Made by a program: the position numbers and the translations under genes | Assembly: GCA_012271015.1 (NCBI GenBank) | Contig: JAAXHD010000189.1 | Coordinates: 45,962-99,295, forward strand | Direction of reading: 5' to 3' | Source of the DNA: Candidatus Poribacteria bacterium | GTDB lineage: Bacteria; Poribacteria; WGA-4E; WGA-3G | Length of the DNA stretch: 53,334 nt | The notes under the pieces: generated by a model | What the model was told of the DNA's origin: nothing | Seen by the model: only the letters and a program-made list of their open reading frames with translations | Database searches by the model: none | Shown here: piece by piece, positions 19,949 through 45,602 of the stretch | Numbering within the stretch: position 1 is the first letter of the stretch | Layout: every line of letters starts with the position of its first letter

Positions 19949-20641
19949 TCAAAAAATTGTGCCGAGCCAATCGTTTATTAGAAAACCGGTGCGGTGAATC
20001 AAGAGGGCGACACGCCCCATGACTGTGTTCCCGAACGCTGCACCAAATCCTACCATAAGAAAGGCAATCCCAATTTTTGACAGCCATCCAACAGGTCCCT
20101 GATGCTCCACAGAGAAAAAGAAATAGATGAGCGTACAAATCAGACCTATGCCTATAAAGACCGCTCCGATAATATCATCAAGGGACATCGAACCGGCATG
20201 CATTTGCGCAAAGGGCGTAAGTGTGCCGTGTGTCTGCTCGAAAATAGCTGCCCGCAGCACATTCGGAATGGCAATTCCAGAGTTAAAACCGATGAGGATA
20301 GCAATAGGGTACCGAATTAGCCATGCCTGCCGGGGGGACAACCTAGCAAAAAAGAGTAAACCAATTCCAATCGGAAATATTTTGAATAAACCACTGAGGG
20401 CTTCGCTTGTTTCTGGTGTAGCTTCACCTCTTATTTGAGTCCCAAGTGCGACCATTGCCTCAGATAAGGGATTCCAAGCTAAGGGTATGAATCCTTGATG
20501 AATAGTAATGACAATGCTATACCCGACTGATATCCCCACAAAGAGATGTTCTGCAAACCGATAGAACGGGTTATCTCGGTAAAGGAAGCTGTAGATACAA
20601 AGTGTCAATAGTGATGCAATCCAGATACCAAAAATTTCCAT
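19949..20641 (-). CDS. Unknown polytopic membrane protein, fourth gene of the FN3/DUF6754 operon
   Basis: 230 residues from the ATG at 20641, with GGAGG 9 nt upstream inside the end of the previous gene. About six membrane segments are visible (MEIFGIWIASLLTLCIYSF, a central pair, and SKIGIAFLMVGFGAAFGNTV near the C-terminus). No enzyme motif is recognised. It is the last gene of four with gaps of only 3-8 nt and overlapping ribosome sites, so stoichiometric production is likely. I infer a subunit of an inner-membrane complex. The function is unknown to me. Confidence 0.65.
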   Translation of the reverse strand: MEIFGIWIASLLTLCIYSFLYRDNPFYRFAEHLFVGISVGYSIVITIHQGFIPLAWNPLSEAMVALGTQIRGEATPETSEALSGLFKIFPIGIGLLFFARLSPRQAWLIRYPIAILIGFNSGIAIPNVLRAAIFEQTHGTLTPFAQMHAGSMSLDDIIGAVFIGIGLICTLIYFFFSVEHQGPVGWLSKIGIAFLMVGFGAAFGNTVMGRVALLIHRTGFLINDWLGTIF

Positions 20642-20645
20642 TAAT

Positions 20646-21461
20646 CTACTCCTCCCGCCGTCTATGAATGAAAAAAGCAATATTGCCCAGAAGGACCAAC
20701 CCAATAAGTAAAACATGCACGAAGGACGCTGTATTTAAGCCTACAGTTCCATCCCCGGGAGCGTTTAACAGTTTCTCGTACTCAGTGGCTCCCAAATAAC
20801 CAGGCATCAAACCGACCAATTGTCCGGTTTGCAGGAAGGGATACATCTGTGCGATAATGACTCCCGTAACGCCTGCAGCAATCTTCAAACCGTATCTTGT
20901 GTTTGCATAAACGATCCAAGCTTCTGTTGAACTTCCAGCAGCAAGATCAAGTAGCAAGGCGATCTGGTCGTAGTTCTTAATATTCTTCATCATCGGAATT
21001 TCATGGATTGCCGTTCCACTGTAATCGGTTTCAAAAACGCTGGCGATATTATTCCCCATCCCAAGGATGACCTGCAAAGCTCCAGGGCGGTAACCCAAAA
21101 AAATGTAATCTTCCCCGTAAATCGCATCGTTTTCCGCAGCAATCTTTTGCATGAGTCCGTGAGCCAAGGTGGGCATATTAGCATAAAGGGTCACTCCAAT
21201 GACGTTTACGCCTTTATTAAAGCAGTGCCGCAGGACCGCTTTTGCCATGGGTTCTGGTTCAGCTAAAGAAGAAGGTCCGTAATCGAAAGCGAGCATAATA
21301 GTCTCCCCTGGAGGAAGTTCCTCAATATAGTCATAAAGTTTCTGCGCTGGTTCGGACACTCTCGTCGGTAGCCTGATCGGGATAAGGGTTGGGATGATAA
21401 CGACTACGGCAACTAATATAAAAATTAGTCGCCGGTCCATATTCATTAGTTTTTCAAGCAT
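20646..21461 (-). CDS. Unknown membrane-anchored alpha/beta protein, third gene of the FN3/DUF6754 operon
   Basis: 271 residues. A signal-anchor helix (residues 11-27, LIFILVAVVVIIPTLIP), a soluble domain of about 200 residues with alternating strands and helices (GETIMLAFDYGPSS, GVNVIGVTLYANMP, YIFLGYRPG, AYAL-like helices), and a C-terminal helix ending in HRRREE. This puts the soluble domain outside the cytoplasm, flanked by two anchors. The upstream DUF6754-type protein has the same plan. The ATG at 21461 has GGAGGA 8 nt upstream and lies 4 nt after the previous stop. No catalytic motif is recognised. Confidence 0.65.
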   Translation of the reverse strand: MLEKLMNMDRRLIFILVAVVVIIPTLIPIRLPTRVSEPAQKLYDYIEELPPGETIMLAFDYGPSSLAEPEPMAKAVLRHCFNKGVNVIGVTLYANMPTLAHGLMQKIAAENDAIYGEDYIFLGYRPGALQVILGMGNNIASVFETDYSGTAIHEIPMMKNIKNYDQIALLLDLAAGSSTEAWIVYANTRYGLKIAAGVTGVIIAQMYPFLQTGQLVGLMPGYLGATEYEKLLNAPGDGTVGLNTASFVHVLLIGLVLLGNIAFFIHRRREE

Positions 21462-21464
21462 TGG

Positions 21465-22115
21465 CTAATCTCCTCCGCCTAAATAAGAGCGTTCAATTCC
21501 CAAGATAATCCGAATGGATTGTGAGATAACGCCCAGGCTTACCCCAAGGATAATACCGCGCCGTGAGGCGAGGTTGGGGATGTCTAAAATCCATTGACGT
21601 GCTTTTGAAGCACCATCTTCCAAAGGAATCCACGACAGGACGGTGTTCCAGGCGAGATCCCCTACGGGGACATTTCCTATCATTACAATCATGGCAGTAA
21701 CGAGGAGCAAAGTTGCCTCAAACGTTCGGGCGCGGAAGGCACGGTAAGCTGCCGAAGCAATAAAGAAGGCAAGCAACGAAAACATCGTTGCGTCCATTGG
21801 AACTTGCACGTTGTTGTATAACCACTCGACTATAGAGTTTTGCGGTCCAAAGGGAATACCTATTAAAACCATAACTGCCATGCCCACAAAAACAACAAGG
21901 CTGTATTGCCAATGCTCCGTGCGGCGACGAACCCGTGTTATATGGGTTTCGATGAGTGTCACCACTGCCAAAACCAATGCGAAGGGCGTTATTATGAGTC
22001 CCCAGTCGATAACCTCTTCATAAAGTTTTTGAGAGACTGAATGTGGACTAAACTGCGTGAAGATTAGTGCTATACCAAAAAGAAAACAGAGGGCTAAGGG
22101 TCCTTGTCGTTTCAT
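21465..22115 (-). CDS. Unknown polytopic membrane protein, second gene of the FN3/DUF6754 operon
   Basis: 216 residues from the ATG at 22115 (AGGAGG 4-5 nt upstream, overlapping the previous stop). An earlier in-frame start would overlap the upstream gene by 34 nt. About five membrane helices are seen: residues 8-20, 33-52, 67-84, 104-120 and 127-145. A final amphipathic segment contains ASRRGIILGVSLGVISQSIRI. A basic cytoplasmic loop (HITRVRRRTEHW) separates helices 2 and 3. The family is not recognised. Confidence 0.65.
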   Translation of the reverse strand: MKRQGPLALCFLFGIALIFTQFSPHSVSQKLYEEVIDWGLIITPFALVLAVVTLIETHITRVRRRTEHWQYSLVVFVGMAVMVLIGIPFGPQNSIVEWLYNNVQVPMDATMFSLLAFFIASAAYRAFRARTFEATLLLVTAMIVMIGNVPVGDLAWNTVLSWIPLEDGASKARQWILDIPNLASRRGIILGVSLGVISQSIRIILGIERSYLGGGD

Positions 22116-22123
22116 AAAGCCTC

Positions 22124-23269
22124 CTAACGTACTCTCTGTAAGAACGATGTAATCCAACCGACACCGGATAATTCCAATATCACACCAAGCACAATTGCTG
22201 CAAAGATGACGACCTTACCCCAATCTTGCCCTCTGAGACTCCCTAAGAACATAGGATCTTTGGATAGATAAGCCGTCGCAGCGTAGAGTTCTTCACCAAT
22301 TAAGGTATAATCACACGCTGCAATAAAGAACGGGAGCTGATGTTCAGAATCTGTCCCTGCAATCTGTATTGCGCCGATAGAATTACCAGTTTCAGCCATG
22401 AGGAGCGATTCAGCATAAAACTGACCTTGCAAAAAAACTGCTGCTGGTTTCTCGCGAACCATCATACCATCTACACCAGCGGCATAAGCAAACTGACTAT
22501 CGGTAAGAAAGAAAATATTTTCTTCGTTGTAAGCATCCGGACGCCCTTCGTCGAGGTAAGACGTTCTCACCATCTCACGTATCACGTTCAGCACGATAGG
22601 GTCGTTACAAGGCACCCGCAGGGGTGTTTCGTAGTCGGCTGTCCGCCGTGCGATTTGCCCTAAGATTGTCATACTGGCAATGGTAGCGACATTATCTACA
22701 CCCCCTAATCCGAGTACATAGAGAATGGAGCGCCCCATTTCTGTGGCTCTACCGATGGCTTCATCCACGGCTTCAAGCCCCGGAATACGACGGACAAATA
22801 CCTCTTTACCGCTTCTCGCATCATAGATATTCCAAAGAATCGCGGCAGAGAAAAGAAGCATGGCGACAAACAGCGGAATTTTGCCGGTATGAAACCATTC
22901 ACCCGTTCCTTTAACGGGTGCCGTTTCCTCAGAATCCACCGTTGCTCCCGTGTCGCTAACCGCTCGCACGATGTAGGCGTAAGCGTTCCCTTTTTCGATA
23001 GTGGCATCAACGTAGGATGTTGTTCCAGCAGGTAACATTTCGCCAATTTCTTCGAGACCCCCGCCTGCAATCCGGCGTAGGATTTGATACCCGCTGATAC
23101 CGCTATCCTCCGGGGCGGCATCCCACTGAATCGTGACGCTCCTGCCGTCGTCGTTGGGTGTATCCACTGCCGTGACATTTGACGGTGGCGAAAGCCCTTG
23201 GCTGAATGCAATGCTAATACTCATGCATAAAACCAAGTAGACCATTAAGCATTTAATTATTTTTTTCAT
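22124..23269 (-). CDS. Fibronectin type III plus DUF6754-like membrane protein, first gene of the operon
   Basis: 381 residues. There is a signal peptide (1-23), then an FN3 domain at about 28-120 (PSNVTAVDTPNDDG, VTIQWDAAPEDSGISGYQILR, AYAYIVRAVS). A membrane helix follows at about 131-148 (KIPLFVAMLLFSAAILW), then a domain of about 200 residues that I recall as DUF6754 (RRIPGLEAVDEAIGRATEMGR, GGVDNVATIASMTILGQ), and a C-terminal helix. FN3 would be periplasmic and the large domain cytoplasmic if the first helix is an ordinary transmembrane helix. It leads an operon of four membrane proteins. The function of DUF6754 proteins is not established. GAGG lies 13 nt before the ATG. Confidence 0.75.
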   Translation of the reverse strand: MKKIIKCLMVYLVLCMSISIAFSQGLSPPSNVTAVDTPNDDGRSVTIQWDAAPEDSGISGYQILRRIAGGGLEEIGEMLPAGTTSYVDATIEKGNAYAYIVRAVSDTGATVDSEETAPVKGTGEWFHTGKIPLFVAMLLFSAAILWNIYDARSGKEVFVRRIPGLEAVDEAIGRATEMGRSILYVLGLGGVDNVATIASMTILGQIARRTADYETPLRVPCNDPIVLNVIREMVRTSYLDEGRPDAYNEENIFFLTDSQFAYAAGVDGMMVREKPAAVFLQGQFYAESLLMAETGNSIGAIQIAGTDSEHQLPFFIAACDYTLIGEELYAATAYLSKDPMFLGSLRGQDWGKVVIFAAIVLGVILELSGVGWITSFLQRVR

Positions 23270-23284
23270 GAATATTATAGTTCC

Positions 23285-23360
23285 TCAATAGTTGTCGGTT
23301 ATCGGAAGAATGGTTGTTGGTTGTCGGTTATCGGTCTTCAGTTAAGAGGTTTTTCAGTAA
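23285..23360. repeat. Low-complexity GTCGGTTATCGG / CAGTTAAGAGG dispersed repeat
   Basis: Repeated words GTTGTCGGTTATCGG, then TCTTCAGTTAAGAGGTTTTT. Similar text (variants of GTCAGTTATCGGT followed by TTAAGAGGCTTT) appears near 3320, 25190, 25590, 34695, 36003, 36085, 43503, 45526 and 49547, nearly always between genes. It is an abundant intergenic family of this genome. Confidence 0.55.
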
Positions 23361-23373
23361 CAATTAACCGCGT

Positions 23374-23389
23374 CTTGGAATATTCCAAG
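23374..23389. promoter_or_regulatory. Perfect 16-bp palindrome upstream of the membrane operon
   Basis: CTTGGAATATTCCAAG is a perfect palindrome about 105 bp upstream of the FN3/DUF6754 gene and about 80 bp downstream of aroB. Its symmetry suits a dimeric repressor site. No regulator is identified. Confidence 0.4.
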
Positions 23390-23440: not shown

Positions 23441-23457
23441 GGGTTGCGTAGCAACCC
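23441..23457. repeat. GGGTTGC-GTA-GCAACCC palindrome
   Basis: A 7-bp perfect stem with a 3-nt loop, 15 nt beyond the aroB stop. A second copy with a TAAC loop is at 43520-43537 after the corrinoid protein gene. No T-run follows, so it is REP-like rather than a classical terminator. Confidence 0.45.
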
Positions 23458-25724: not shown

Positions 25725-26321
25725 ATGGCACGACAGCTCAGAATGGTACGTCCCAATTTAGAAAATTTATCCGAACTCGAACTCCCGCCAGGCTACGGCA
25801 TACGAACCTATCGTCAGGGAGATGAGGTGCATTGGGCACATATCATTAGTGACTCGTTTGGCGGAAGAAAACGCACTGCTCAAGATACGAGGAACGAGAT
25901 TACCGGTAGAGACGTATTCATTCCTAATGGACTCTATTTTGCAACACATCAGGATATTCCCGTTGGAACTGCTTGTGCATGGCGGGAATCTGTAGATGAG
26001 AAGGATGTCGGCTATGTGCACATGGTAGGCGTTGTCGCTGAACACACCGGACATAAACTCGGAAAATGGGTCTCACTCGCCGTTCTGATCTATTTCCGCG
26101 ACAACGGATTCAAATGCTCAATGCTGGATACCGACGATTTCCGTGTGCCTGCTGTCAAGACTTATCTGAATTTAGGATTCATCCCCGTTTACGTTGAAGA
26201 CGGACAACCCAAACGGTGGCGAGACATTTTTGAGAAATTGGGACTGCCCTCTATGTCCTCGCAAATCGAGAACGTCAGAGAAACACTTCCTGAGGATCTG
26301 TGGGTGAAAGTATCGCGTTAG
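25725..26321 (+). CDS. GNAT-family N-acetyltransferase, tandem copy 1
   Basis: 198 residues. The GNAT acetyl-CoA site shows as VGVVAEHTGHKLGKWV, where the usual Q/RxxGxG/A loop is EHTGHKLGK, followed by LDTDDFRVPAVKTYLNLGF, the typical end of a GNAT domain (NxxxxxxYxxxGF). The N-terminal YGIRTYRQGDEVHWAHI strand-helix is shared with the next gene. About 32 C-terminal residues are extra. It would transfer acetyl from acetyl-CoA to an amine. The substrate is unknown. The translation site AAGG comes from the leader repeat. It is followed 7 nt later by a paralogue and then the membrane glycosyltransferase, probably one transcript. Confidence 0.8.
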   Translation: MARQLRMVRPNLENLSELELPPGYGIRTYRQGDEVHWAHIISDSFGGRKRTAQDTRNEITGRDVFIPNGLYFATHQDIPVGTACAWRESVDEKDVGYVHMVGVVAEHTGHKLGKWVSLAVLIYFRDNGFKCSMLDTDDFRVPAVKTYLNLGFIPVYVEDGQPKRWRDIFEKLGLPSMSSQIENVRETLPEDLWVKVSR

Positions 26322-26328
26322 AAGTAGC

Positions 26329-26862
26329 ATGGAAGATCAACTCAAAATGGCTCGTCACAGTTTAGAAAATCTGCCGACGCTCCAGTGTCCTGAAGGGTAT
26401 CATATCCGCACCTACCGACAAGGAGACGAAACACATTGGGCGCGAATCATGGACATCGCCTTCGTAGACCAAGGCAGAACCACCCAAGATACCTACACTA
26501 ACGTTATTAACCAACCCAATTTCGATCCAGATGGCTTTTGTTTCGTTATTCACAAAGATATGCCTATCGGTACAGCGTGTGCTTGGCAGGAATCTCTTCG
26601 TGGCAAACCGATTGGCTACATTGACATGCTTGCTGTGCTGCCGGAGCACACAGGGCATAGACTCGGAAAATGGTTAACAGTGTTTCTCTTGCACTATTTT
26701 AAAGAGCGACGTGTGGCATCCGTAATGTTAGACACAGACGATTTTCGACTCCCCGCAATCAAAAATTATCTCAACTTAGGGTTCGTTCCTGTTTATGCGG
26801 GTGAAAACCACCTGCTACGTTGGCGGAGTATCTTTGAAAAGCTGGACCTTTTCCAAAAATGA
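26329..26862 (+). CDS. GNAT-family N-acetyltransferase, tandem copy 2
   Basis: 177 residues, strongly similar to the preceding gene (both begin with an R-Q-L-R/K-M-A/V-R-type segment and share YRQGDE.HWA, GTACAWQESL, EHTGH.LGKW, LDTDDFR.PA.K.YLNLGF). This makes a clear tandem duplication with divergence. It has the same GNAT fold and acetyl-CoA loop, and lacks the C-terminal extension of copy 1. No strong ribosome site is seen before the ATG at 26329. The stop overlaps the start of the downstream glycosyltransferase (ATGA), so production is coupled to it. Confidence 0.8.
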   Translation: MEDQLKMARHSLENLPTLQCPEGYHIRTYRQGDETHWARIMDIAFVDQGRTTQDTYTNVINQPNFDPDGFCFVIHKDMPIGTACAWQESLRGKPIGYIDMLAVLPEHTGHRLGKWLTVFLLHYFKERRVASVMLDTDDFRLPAIKNYLNLGFVPVYAGENHLLRWRSIFEKLDLFQK

Positions 26863-30923: not shown

Positions 30924-33900
30924 ATGTTGCCCATATCTCGAGCGATTTTCTCTTATTCATATCTATTTTGCTTCTTCATGCTCACGCTGAATCTACCTGT
31001 CCAGCATATAGATGCAGCGGATCATGAAGGCGAAGGAAGCACACCACCTCCAACTGTCAACGGGTCCATTAACAAAGCGCAGACACTGATATTAGGGACA
31101 ACATCAACAGAAACCTTCAGTTTTACAGATGTGTATCATATAGAATTCAGCCTAAATATACCCGGTAATATCGAACTGATCGCCACAGAAGGCAATGTCA
31201 TCACCGTTAGGCTCGAGAAACAAGCACGGGAAACCACAAACACAAAACAGAACGATCTGACCCGCGACTATCTTGATAACATCACCCTCACAGGAACACA
31301 AAGCGATGATACTCTCCAGTTGAGGATACGACTACCGGGTAATTCTCCTGAAGCACAGTTGGGTCCGCCACCTAACCCGGAAAATTTACAAGTTGGGCAC
31401 TATGATGGACTCCAACTGAAATGTACAATTAAAACCCCCGCGGATGTCTCTGTTAAACTCCATACCAAAACCGGAGATATATCCGTTCAACATATCCGTG
31501 GAAAGATAGAAGCCTCGACAGAGAATGGGAACGTCCATTTAGGTGAAACTTCAGGCAATTATAACATCAGTGTGACCAAGGGAAACATTGACGGACAAAT
31601 TTTGCTAACCCAAGGACAAAACAAGTTAGAAACCCAAAATGGCTCAATTGGATTGGTGGTACTTGACCCTGTTGCGGCACCGATGGACATAACCGCGCAA
31701 GGCGGTAGCATCCGTTTACAACTCCCTGAAAATTATGGTGCCGATGTCGAGTTTGAGAGTCAAAAACAGCAAATTGTTGTCAATCTGCCCGCACAATTTG
31801 ATGAGGAAACAGGATTCACCATTATTAACGACGGTGGACCGTTGTTTCGGTTGAAAGCCACAAACACAATTTCACTGCTACCCAGTTCACCGAGCGGCGA
31901 AAAAGCACCCACAGATGCTGGAACGAATTCATTCGTGGATGCTGCTCAACCTGTTCCCCAAATCGTAAAAGCACCCGTTATTGATGGCAATTTATCCGAA
32001 ATCGGATGGCAAGCCGCTGCGCTGCTCTCTCCGTTCCAAAATTCAGATGGCACCGATGTTCCAAGCAATCCAACTGAAACTTTTTTAATGTGGGATGCCG
32101 AGAATTTCTATGTCGGTATAAAGGCGTATGTGTCTGATTCGTTTCTTCCCTACGTTTCACAGACCCAGCAGGATTCACCAATTTGGGAGGACGAGTGCAT
32201 TGAAATTCTGATTGATCCTGACCCGAAAACCGATATCTATTATCACCTTGTTATCAACCCAATTAGTGCATACTTTGATCAGCGTGTTAATACACCGGGA
32301 GAACCCAGTTTCCAGCTTGCCCCTCGTGATATTCAAGCTACTTTGAATCGACAATCGATGCAAACAGCGTTCGATGCAGATAGCACATGGAACTCAGAAG
32401 CGAAAGTTGCCAGTCAAATTAACACGACCTTTTGGAGTCTTGAAGTCGCTCTCCCGCGTAAAACGTTGGAGCCTTCTTCTGAGGTGGATTCGCAGTCGAC
32501 ATCTTCTGTTGAAAGTAGGTGGCTTTTTAACGTCCATCGTAAGTTGTATAGCAGCAATATGAAGAGTCTTATTCCTGCTAAGTCCAGGGAATATAGTTAT
32601 TGGCAGCCGACTTATGATAACGAGTACCCATGGTGGCCCCACTCACCGCATGAGTACGTAGGAGTACTTTCGGGACGTTATGGTCCGGCGATGGGGGTTT
32701 TGGAATTCGTTACGACACCATCCGCTTCTGAAGACTTCGCATCTGAAACGAAAGTGCGGGTTGCAACTATTGAAATTAAAGGGAATACCAAAATTCCAAC
32801 AGAGGTCGTTCAACAGTCCCTTCCCATTCAGCCTGAAGATATTATCACAAGTCCACAACTTTCTTGGTTAATCACAGAGTTGGGAGAACACGGGTGGTTT
32901 CAAGACGTGCGTTTGGAAACGAAGCAGATGGACAGTGGTAGTGAAGAATCAGTCGGCAGTCAGAAACCAGAAGGTCTTGTTTCACCAGACCCTGCTTTAT
33001 CGAAAACCGAAAACCGAAAACCGATAGCCATTCCAAGTATCAGTTTGCATATCCGTGTTACGGAAGTCCCAGTGCTTTTTGCTCAGCAAATTAAAATCGA
33101 AGGGAACAGAAGTTTCCCCTCACGATTCATCAAGGAGTGGTTTCAGTTAGAATCTGGCTACCTCGCTGTCGCGGCTGTTAGACTGAAGCAACAATTAATT
33201 GCTGATTTTTATTTAAATCGTGGATATGAATTCGCCACGGTTGCCTATCAATCCGTCAATGATGTGCTCGAATTTAGCATTGATGAGGGGACACTGCACG
33301 AAATTCGTTTCACTGGAAACAGTCGAATCTCGCGGGTGGAACTGTTATCAGCCCTTGATCTAAAGACTCAGGGCAGTGATGGAGAACGAAGTTCACAAGT
33401 TTCAGATATTTACCATCATTCCCTTGGTCAGTCGCAGATAAACCGCATGCGTAAAGCACTCAGCGAGAACAGTGAGCATTTCAAATCGGTGCGGGATTGG
33501 CGTGTCCAACGCGAGGGCGGAAAAAATGTCATGATTGTCGATATTGAAGAGCAACCCTTCGCGAAACCCGGTGCTTCTCCAATCCTTCAATTCAATCGGG
33601 TTCACGGGTTGATGCTTGGCGCCCGTGGAATGCTCTCGACGCGTCTCACGGGTGAAGAACAGGTTTTCGGTTCAATCAGTCGTGGATTTTCGAGCAAAAT
33701 ATGGAACTATCACGCAGGGGGCGAAAAAGGGCTCTTTAAACGGCAGCTCCTCAAATTGGGAGGGAGTTTTTATAAGGTCACCGATATTAGTTCTAATATA
33801 CATCTACGTCCTGCTGAGATTAGTCTCAGTGCCGCCGGCTACGGTTTCGCCCTTCAAGATTATTACCAACGTCAGGGCGCGCAAGGGTGGATAACTTACG

Positions 33901-36010: not shown

Positions 36011-36190
36011 CAGTCAGCAATCAGGAAAGAAAATGTTAGCTATATGCAGGTCACATTATTGTTACAAAGCCTATGAAGGATATTCATCAGTCGTCAGTTA
36101 AGACGTGTGGCGGTTGCGTATTGCGTGAAGGTCAAAGAACTCCTTTTTAATTGATAACCGATAACTGATAACCAATATAACCGACAACCA
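36003..36190. repeat. Dispersed TCAGTTATCGGT-type repeat and tandem TGATAACC words
   Basis: AGCAGTCAGCAATCAGG, CAGTCGTCAGTTAAGACG and TTGATAACCGATAACTGATA fill the gap between the ygfZ-like gene and tatT. The last words make a short degenerate tandem tract. Confidence 0.45.
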
Positions 36191-45523: not shown

Positions 45524-45602
45524 TTGGCAGTCGGTTGTCAGTTCTCGGTTAAGAGACTTTCGGCTCACAATAAAGGGATCTTCTTGAGATAGCCTCAAAA
45601 CC

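What the first reader, a model, noticed from the sequence alone, without database searches (positions are those of the whole stretch)
19949..23269. Undescribed four-gene membrane operon built around an FN3-DUF6754 protein
Four consecutive minus-strand genes with intergenic gaps of 3-8 nt all have GGAGG-type sites overlapping the previous stop. Two products have the same plan, a soluble alpha/beta domain of about 200 residues held between N- and C-terminal helices, and two are polytopic. The first adds a signal peptide and FN3 domain. No enzyme, transporter ATPase or secretion motif is recognisable, and the coupling suggests a stoichiometric membrane complex. A 16-bp palindrome lies upstream.
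Basis: partly seen in the sequence, partly recalled or inferred. Interest (0 to 1): 0.78.

Follow-up and report, generated by a model that had tools for sequence, protein, structure and literature searches.

The report
Ancient eight-gene bacterial envelope machine
The four linked genes are the membrane half of an undescribed eight-gene system, shared by several deep bacterial phyla, that pairs a chaperone-like ATPase with a membrane complex and sometimes sits in one operon with a peptide-type importer; its substrate is unknown.

Summary
The four-gene operon is real and its synteny is conserved. P1 (FN3-TM-DUF6754-TM), P2, P3 and P4 keep the same order in Poribacteria, Latescibacterota, WOR-3, Zixibacteria, Planctomycetota and Oligoflexia. 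It is not self-contained. In several phyla it is the 3' half of an operon c47-c46-c18-c19-P1-P2-P3-P4. c18 is a Pfam MutL (GlmL-like) ASKHA ATPase with 201 of 597 aligned positions invariant; c19 has a barrel-sandwich domain; c46 and c47 are small proteins. In the window's genus the parts are dispersed but near-universal and single-copy. Across 199 Planctomycetota genomes P1 and c18 co-occur (45 both, 5 and 4 alone, 145 neither; p=4e-34). Opp-type ABC importer genes adjoin the block in some Poribacteria, Latescibacterota and Planctomycetota. P1's outer head is FN3, LysM or nothing recognisable. I infer an ASKHA-powered inner-membrane complex serving envelope ligand uptake, perhaps of peptides. 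Biochemical function is untested.

The parts
22124..23269 (-). P1: signal peptide, FN3 domain (outside), TM, DUF6754 domain (predicted cytosolic), TM
   Evidence: (DUF6754 401.7 bits; fn3 23.4 bits, just under its cut-off); about 60 invariant columns across phyla
23198..23269 (-). P1 signal peptide (residues 1-24, ...AFS/Q), by inspection
   Evidence: sequence; hydrophobic segment 3-21
22925..23191 (-). P1 FN3 domain (residues 27-115); absent or replaced by LysM domains in other lineages
22142..22903 (-). P1 DUF6754 region (residues 123-376), including both TM helices
21465..22115 (-). P2: polytopic protein, about 6 TM
   Evidence: no consistent Pfam match
20646..21461 (-). P3: TM - Rossmann-like alpha/beta domain (predicted extracytoplasmic) - TM
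   Evidence: AF2 mean pLDDT 90.3; only generic Rossmann matches in PDB
19949..20641 (-). P4: polytopic protein, about 6 TM
   Evidence: no consistent Pfam match
22120..22124 (-). GGAGG ribosome-binding site of P2, overlapping the P1 stop
21470..21476 (-). GGAGGAG ribosome-binding site of P3, inside the last P2 codons
20651..20656 (-). GGGAGG ribosome-binding site of P4, inside the last P3 codons
23374..23389 (.).

Best explanation
P1-P4 are the membrane core of a conserved eight-component inner-membrane machine, c47-c46-c18-c19-P1-P2-P3-P4. Shown: the gene set is syntenic in several phyla and co-occurs when dispersed; c18 keeps ASKHA nucleotide-binding motifs; Opp/Dpp-type ABC genes repeatedly join the operon. 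Inferred: c18 is the cytosolic ATPase and c19 its adaptor; they act on the cytosolic DUF6754 domain of P1, so that ATP-driven conformational change is passed through P1, P2 and P4 to the extracytoplasmic P3 Rossmann domain and the exchangeable P1 head (FN3, LysM or other). The LysM heads and the Opp-type importer make the likeliest task the handling of a cell-envelope-derived ligand, such as muropeptides or other peptides, for uptake. My separate estimates: one functional complex 0.8; ATP-driven by c18 0.55; coupled to Opp-type uptake 0.5; peptide or muropeptide ligand 0.2.
For: Synteny P1-P2-P3-P4 in six phyla. Eight-gene operon in Poribacteria L036 and L039 and Planctomycetota L155-L157, L160, L162, L163; seven-gene forms without c47 in Latescibacterota L079 and Oligoflexia L089, and a rearranged one in Zixibacteria L081. 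Co-occurrence of P1 and c18 in 199 Planctomycetota genomes 45/5/4/145, Fisher p=3.7e-34, or 7e-32 without the query genomes. 14 of 14 non-poribacterial genomes with P1 have c18, WOR-3 included, where it is unlinked (in G066 only a fragment at a contig edge). In 60 Poribacteria: P1 57, c18 54, c19 52, c46 56, c47 55. c18 motifs ATDCGSTTTK, DIGGATTD and SGGxLSHAP invariant or nearly so. Opp-type ATPase 2 nt after the P4 stop in two Poribacteria families, after P4 in Latescibacterota L084, SBP-DppB-DppC-OppD-OppF after the block in Planctomycetota L083, DppB/DppC upstream of P1 in L035 and L047-L049. In G239 the genome's only detected oligo_HPY gene lies between two P blocks. LysM domains on some P1 heads.
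Against: No physical interaction, ATPase activity or transport was tested. Most loci have no ABC gene next to the block (about 10 of 81 loci do), so the ABC link may be lineage-specific. Genomes for the oligo_HPY count were chosen because they showed adjacency. LysM heads are seen only on family f3 paralogues. c18 belongs to a family otherwise known from B12-enzyme operons. Topologies rest on hydropathy and charge, and the DUF6754 fold was modelled poorly (pLDDT under 50 in places).
Confidence: 0.45

Rival explanations
1. A GlmL/DdrA-like repair or maturation system: c18 with c19 is an ASKHA reactivase, and its client is the cytosolic DUF6754 domain of P1, an enzyme that needs ATP-dependent reactivation at the membrane.
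For: c18 is a Pfam MutL (424 bits) and its nearest curated families are GlmL and a GlmL-related ornithine protein. DUF6754 is as conserved as an enzyme, with some 60 invariant residues including C319 and D320. A weak RraA-like (swivel-type) match in c19 (E 0.016). c19-P1 pairs persist where P2-P4 are not adjacent (L150, L153).
Against: c18 fails the GlmL, Or-4 and glmL_fam cut-offs. No B12 mutase or dehydratase was seen next to the block. It does not explain P2-P4 or the ABC link.
Confidence: 0.2
2. A redox-driven ion pump distantly like Rnf/Nqr: c19 as the RnfC/NqrA-like cytosolic subunit, P2 and P4 as RnfA/RnfE-like subunits, P3 as the outer subunit.
For: c19 matches RnfC_N in 10 of 19 members (best 3.9e-6) and NQRA_N in 2. 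P2 and P4 are about six-TM proteins of 200-230 residues. P3 has a nucleotide-binding-type Rossmann fold.
Against: P2 and P4 give no Rnf-Nqr match. No Fe-S cysteine motif or FMN-threonine motif is apparent in the alignments. Barrel-sandwich domains are widespread, and the biotin/lipoyl family matches as often. An ATPase would be unneeded.
Confidence: 0.08
3. An inner-membrane assembly platform for secretion or surface structures, with c18 in the place of PilM/FtsA (actin-like) and P1-P4 as the platform.
For: Actin-like superfamily of c18, cytosolic domain on a bitopic partner, variable outer heads.
Against: No secretin, pilin, hexameric ATPase or prepilin peptidase gene was seen to recur at the loci inspected, though not all flanking genes were annotated. 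c18 is a catalytic-type ASKHA of the MutL family, not PilM/FtsA.
Confidence: 0.1
4. A sponge-host interaction factor: the FN3 protein is a eukaryote-like symbiosis protein.
For: The genome is a Poribacteria MAG, and FN3 proteins of Poribacteria have been discussed in this role (PMC3909097).
Against: FN3 is not detected in P1 of families f2 and f4 or in the other phyla tested, while DUF6754 and the partners are kept in groundwater and other non-sponge phyla.
Confidence: 0.03
5. A mobile or anti-phage defence operon.
For: Multi-gene membrane operon of unknown function.
Against: No PADLOC match. Near-universal, mostly single-copy and monophyletic in Poribacteria.
Confidence: 0.02

Closest known systems
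GlmL / MutL family (Pfam PF13941; NF040745, TIGR01319)
   Same: c18 is a full-length Pfam MutL match with the three ASKHA motifs.
   Different: Below the cut-offs of all three curated GlmL-type families; about 120 residues of C-terminal extension; linked to membrane proteins, not to a B12 mutase.
DUF6754 (PF20539)
   Same: P1 is an unambiguous member.
   Different: The Pfam entry gives no function, and no paper in the library mentions it.
Opp/Dpp-type (PepT) ABC importers
   Same: Full or partial Opp gene sets share an operon with the block in some lineages.
   Different: P1-P4 are not Opp subunits; most loci lack the ABC genes; P3 is not a substrate-binding-protein fold by the PDB comparison.
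Rnf / Nqr complexes
   Same: Barrel-sandwich domain in c19 like RnfC_N/NQRA_N; several small polytopic subunits.
   Different: No homologous membrane subunits, no cofactor motifs seen, an ATPase instead.
PilM/GspL or FtsA actin-like membrane adaptors
   Same: Actin-like cytosolic protein presumed to act on bitopic membrane partners.
   Different: Different sequence family; no pilus or secretion genes seen at the loci. The analogy is from general knowledge, not tested.

Membership tests
DUF6754 (PF20539) | Match above the curated cut-off over the full model | tested here: met
   401.7 bits against 27, model 3-256 of 257
GlmL / methylaspartate mutase accessory proteins (c18) | Score above curated cut-offs of NF040745, NF040744 or TIGR01319 | tested here: not met
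   222 of 475, 212 of 600, 166 of 204 bits
GlmL / methylaspartate mutase accessory proteins (c18) | ASKHA fold family (Pfam MutL) and nucleotide-binding motifs | tested here: met
   PF13941 424 bits; motifs invariant or nearly so in 34 rows
GlmL / methylaspartate mutase accessory proteins (c18) | Genetic link to a B12-dependent mutase | tested here: inconclusive
   none seen among the flanking genes listed, but flanks were not all annotated
Opp/Dpp ABC importer | P1-P4 homologous to SBP, permease or ATPase subunits | tested here: not met
   no Pfam match of that kind
Opp/Dpp ABC importer | Physical or functional coupling to the importer | not testable with these tools
   only operon linkage is shown
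Rnf/Nqr complex | RnfA/E or NqrD/E-type membrane subunits | tested here: not met
   P2 and P4 give no such Pfam match in 24 and 25 members
Rnf/Nqr complex | Fe-S or covalent flavin sites | tested here: not met
   no conserved cysteine cluster or flavinylation motif in the alignments, by inspection
Anti-phage defence system | Match to a PADLOC model | tested here: not met
   none for P1-P4, c18 or c19

The most novel reading that the evidence does not exclude
A new class of ATP-powered membrane machine in which the motor is an ASKHA (actin/Hsp70/hydantoinase-type) ATPase instead of an ABC, P-type, rotary or AAA+ ATPase, transmitting force or gating through a barrel-sandwich adaptor and the DUF6754 domain to a core of two polytopic subunits with an extracytoplasmic Rossmann domain.
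Probability: 0.25. Interest if true: 0.9.

Novelty: categorically new. Interest (0 to 1): 0.72.

Why it matters
At least eight gene families, seven of them without any functional annotation found here, form one module that is near-universal in Poribacteria and recurs in five other deep phyla. It gives a function hypothesis for DUF6754 and for a GlmL-like ATPase subfamily that would be easy to mis-annotate as a B12-enzyme accessory protein. Because some large single-contig Planctomycetota genomes carry the operon, a genetic test may be feasible in a cultured relative. It also shows that the FN3 domain, which invites a symbiosis reading, is an exchangeable head on a housekeeping-like membrane protein.

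Tried and rejected
Pfam, NCBIfam and PDB sequence searches for P2-P4: no consistent family. Foldseek with the P3 model: only generic Rossmann enzymes, TM-scores up to about 0.4, so no function drawn. AF2 of P1: the FN3 part is good, the DUF6754 part too poor to interpret. P1-P3 homology: rejected. Palindrome and the nearby GGGTTGCTACGCAACCC hairpin as operators: rejected, the first chance-level and unconserved, the second present four times in the genome. The c21 cluster seen upstream in GC-rich genomes is an antisense ORF over c18. Literature: no paper on DUF6754, and nothing useful under PF13941 in the open-access library. Taxa outside the hit phyla could not be surveyed, because the one genome-contig scan used patterns from the window P1 and reaches only fairly close relatives.
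Full report
OBSERVATION. The window lies in a Candidatus Poribacteria MAG: the 26 closest genome-contig hits are all Poribacteria, and the window maps to G000:C106. The four ORFs are as described, with gaps of 8, 3 and 4 nt and strong ribosome-binding sites. P1 is DUF6754 by Pfam at 401.7 bits with an N-terminal FN3 domain (Foldseek support). P2, P3 and P4 have no usable family in Pfam or NCBIfam. The claim that all sites overlap the previous stop holds only for P2. The 16-bp palindrome at 23374-23389 is real, but two such palindromes occur in the window against 0.85 in shuffles, and none is found in the 400 nt upstream of P1 in 14 congeners.

SYNTENY. DUF6754 is present in 57 of 60 relatives. 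With profiles built from the loci, the order P1-P2-P3-P4 is found in Poribacteria, Latescibacterota, WOR-3, Zixibacteria, Planctomycetota and Oligoflexia, mostly with overlapping or near-abutting genes. The P1 tree has the Poribacteria as one supported group (100/99), as expected for old vertical inheritance, with paralogous copies in some Planctomycetota and Zixibacteria. Where the block is broken up, in some Planctomycetota, P3 is still encoded elsewhere: P3 was found in 12 of 12 genomes with P1 and in none of the 3 tested relatives without it.

THE LARGER UNIT. Four further families precede P1 in distant phyla: c47 (about 130 residues, two hydrophobic segments by inspection and a weak, sub-threshold bacterial PH match), c46 (about 80-130 residues, no family), c18 (about 600 residues, Pfam MutL 424 bits) and c19 (about 375 residues). 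In L036, a poribacterial relative of the same class, the order is c47-c46-c18-c19-P1-P2-P3-P4 followed by an Opp-type ATPase gene, and the same eight genes occur in Planctomycetota L155-L157, L160, L162 and L163. In the window's own genus the parts are scattered: in G000 c18 is on C148, c19 on C159, c47 on C149 and P1-P4 on C106; c46 was not found in that 84%-complete assembly. Among 60 relatives P1, c18, c19, c46 and c47 are found in 57, 54, 52, 56 and 55 genomes, and in 37 to 39 of the 39 best genomes. Across 199 Planctomycetota genomes, where the system is patchy, P1 and c18 were both found in 45, P1 alone in 5, c18 alone in 4, neither in 145; Fisher p=3.7e-34, and 7e-32 after removing the four query genomes. 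The test treats genomes as independent, which relatives are not, so the p-value overstates the case; the near-absence of one without the other is the robust part. All 14 non-poribacterial genomes taken from the P1 search have c18, one of them only as a contig-edge fragment.

WHAT THE PARTS LOOK LIKE. c18 keeps ATDCGSTTTK, DIGGATTD and SGGxLSHAP, the phosphate-1, phosphate-2 and adenosine motifs of the ASKHA superfamily (motif identification from general knowledge), with 201 of 597 aligned positions invariant in 34 rows. It fails the cut-offs of the GlmL equivalog, the ornithine Or-4 equivalog and the GlmL subfamily. c19 carries a barrel-sandwich domain: RnfC_N matches 10 of 19 members, best 3.9e-6, and biotin/lipoyl 10 of 19. 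A middle region with a weak RraA match (E 0.016) and a KOW-like C-terminus (one weak match) are tentative. P3 is modelled with confidence (mean pLDDT 90.3) as TM-Rossmann-TM, with only generic fold matches. P1's DUF6754 region is modelled poorly. Hydropathy and charge averaged over the alignments put FN3 outside, DUF6754 inside and the P3 domain outside.

CLUES TO FUNCTION. First, Opp/Dpp-type ABC genes sit beside the block in several lineages: an OppD-like gene starts 2 nt after the P4 stop in L036 and L039; OppD and OppF follow P4 in Latescibacterota L084; SBP, permease and ATPase genes follow the second block in Planctomycetota L083 and partly L086; SBP-DppB-DppC or DppB-DppC precede P1 in L035 and L047-L049; a fused Opp ATPase lies between two blocks in L162. 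In G239 that is the only oligo_HPY gene detected in the genome, and in G065 both of the genome's oligo_HPY genes lie on the block's contig within about 15 kb. These genomes were selected for adjacency, and most loci have none, so this is a recurrent but not constant link. Second, the extracytoplasmic head of P1 varies: FN3 in the window, nothing recognisable in short P1s of families f2 and f4, and LysM domains in the f3 paralogues, two of which neighbour SBP-DppB-DppC. LysM domains commonly bind peptidoglycan or chitin (general knowledge).

EXPLANATION. I propose an inner-membrane complex of P1-P4 driven or gated by the cytosolic ATPase c18 through c19 and the DUF6754 domain, serving the handling of an envelope-derived ligand taken up by an Opp-type importer where that is present. 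Shown here: gene content, order, co-occurrence, motifs. Inferred: physical complex, direction of coupling, ligand. The main rival is that c18/c19 maintain or reactivate DUF6754 as an enzyme, as ASKHA reactivases do. Redox pump, secretion platform, host-interaction and defence readings are weaker for the reasons listed.

KNOWN OR NEW. DUF6754 and MutL are known Pfam families, but no paper in the held library describes DUF6754, and no curated family covers c19, c46, c47 or P2-P4. The library is open-access only, so an earlier description in a subscription journal cannot be excluded. On the evidence here the combination matches no known kind of system; I rate it categorically new, while its biochemical novelty stays unproved.

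Noticed in passing
window 23291-23336, 33005-33028, 36149-36172, 45534-45550 and others: Dispersed repeat close to AACCGATAACCGACAAC: 10 matches with up to 3 mismatches against 0.18 expected; one cluster fills part of the intergenic region upstream of P1.
   Followed up: partly
window 23441-23457: Hairpin GGGTTGCTACGCAACCC between aroB and P1; four exact copies in the genome, so a dispersed element rather than an operon-specific one.
   Followed up: partly
L122, L123, L124, L036: In deep Poribacteria the c47-c46-c18-c19 genes follow gap-pgk-tpi (and a secG-like gene in L122-L124), a housekeeping glycolysis cluster.
   Followed up: no
L081 2135-13304: Zixibacteria locus with two complete P1-P4 sets separated by c46-c18-c19; the two P1 copies are only distantly related in the tree.
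   Followed up: partly
L147, L150, L153: Some Planctomycetota keep only c19-P1 (L147 also c18) together while P3 lies elsewhere in the genome.
   Followed up: partly
window 25725-26862: Two adjacent, similar acetyltransferase-like ORFs (198 and 177 residues), apparently a tandem duplication.
   Followed up: no
G060:C1:903100-904794, G064:C13:4872-6296, G111:C308:2052-3833, G084:C95:24408-26150: Second, more distant c18-like genes (46-48% identity), in some cases in much longer open frames; a possible paralogous subfamily.
   Followed up: no
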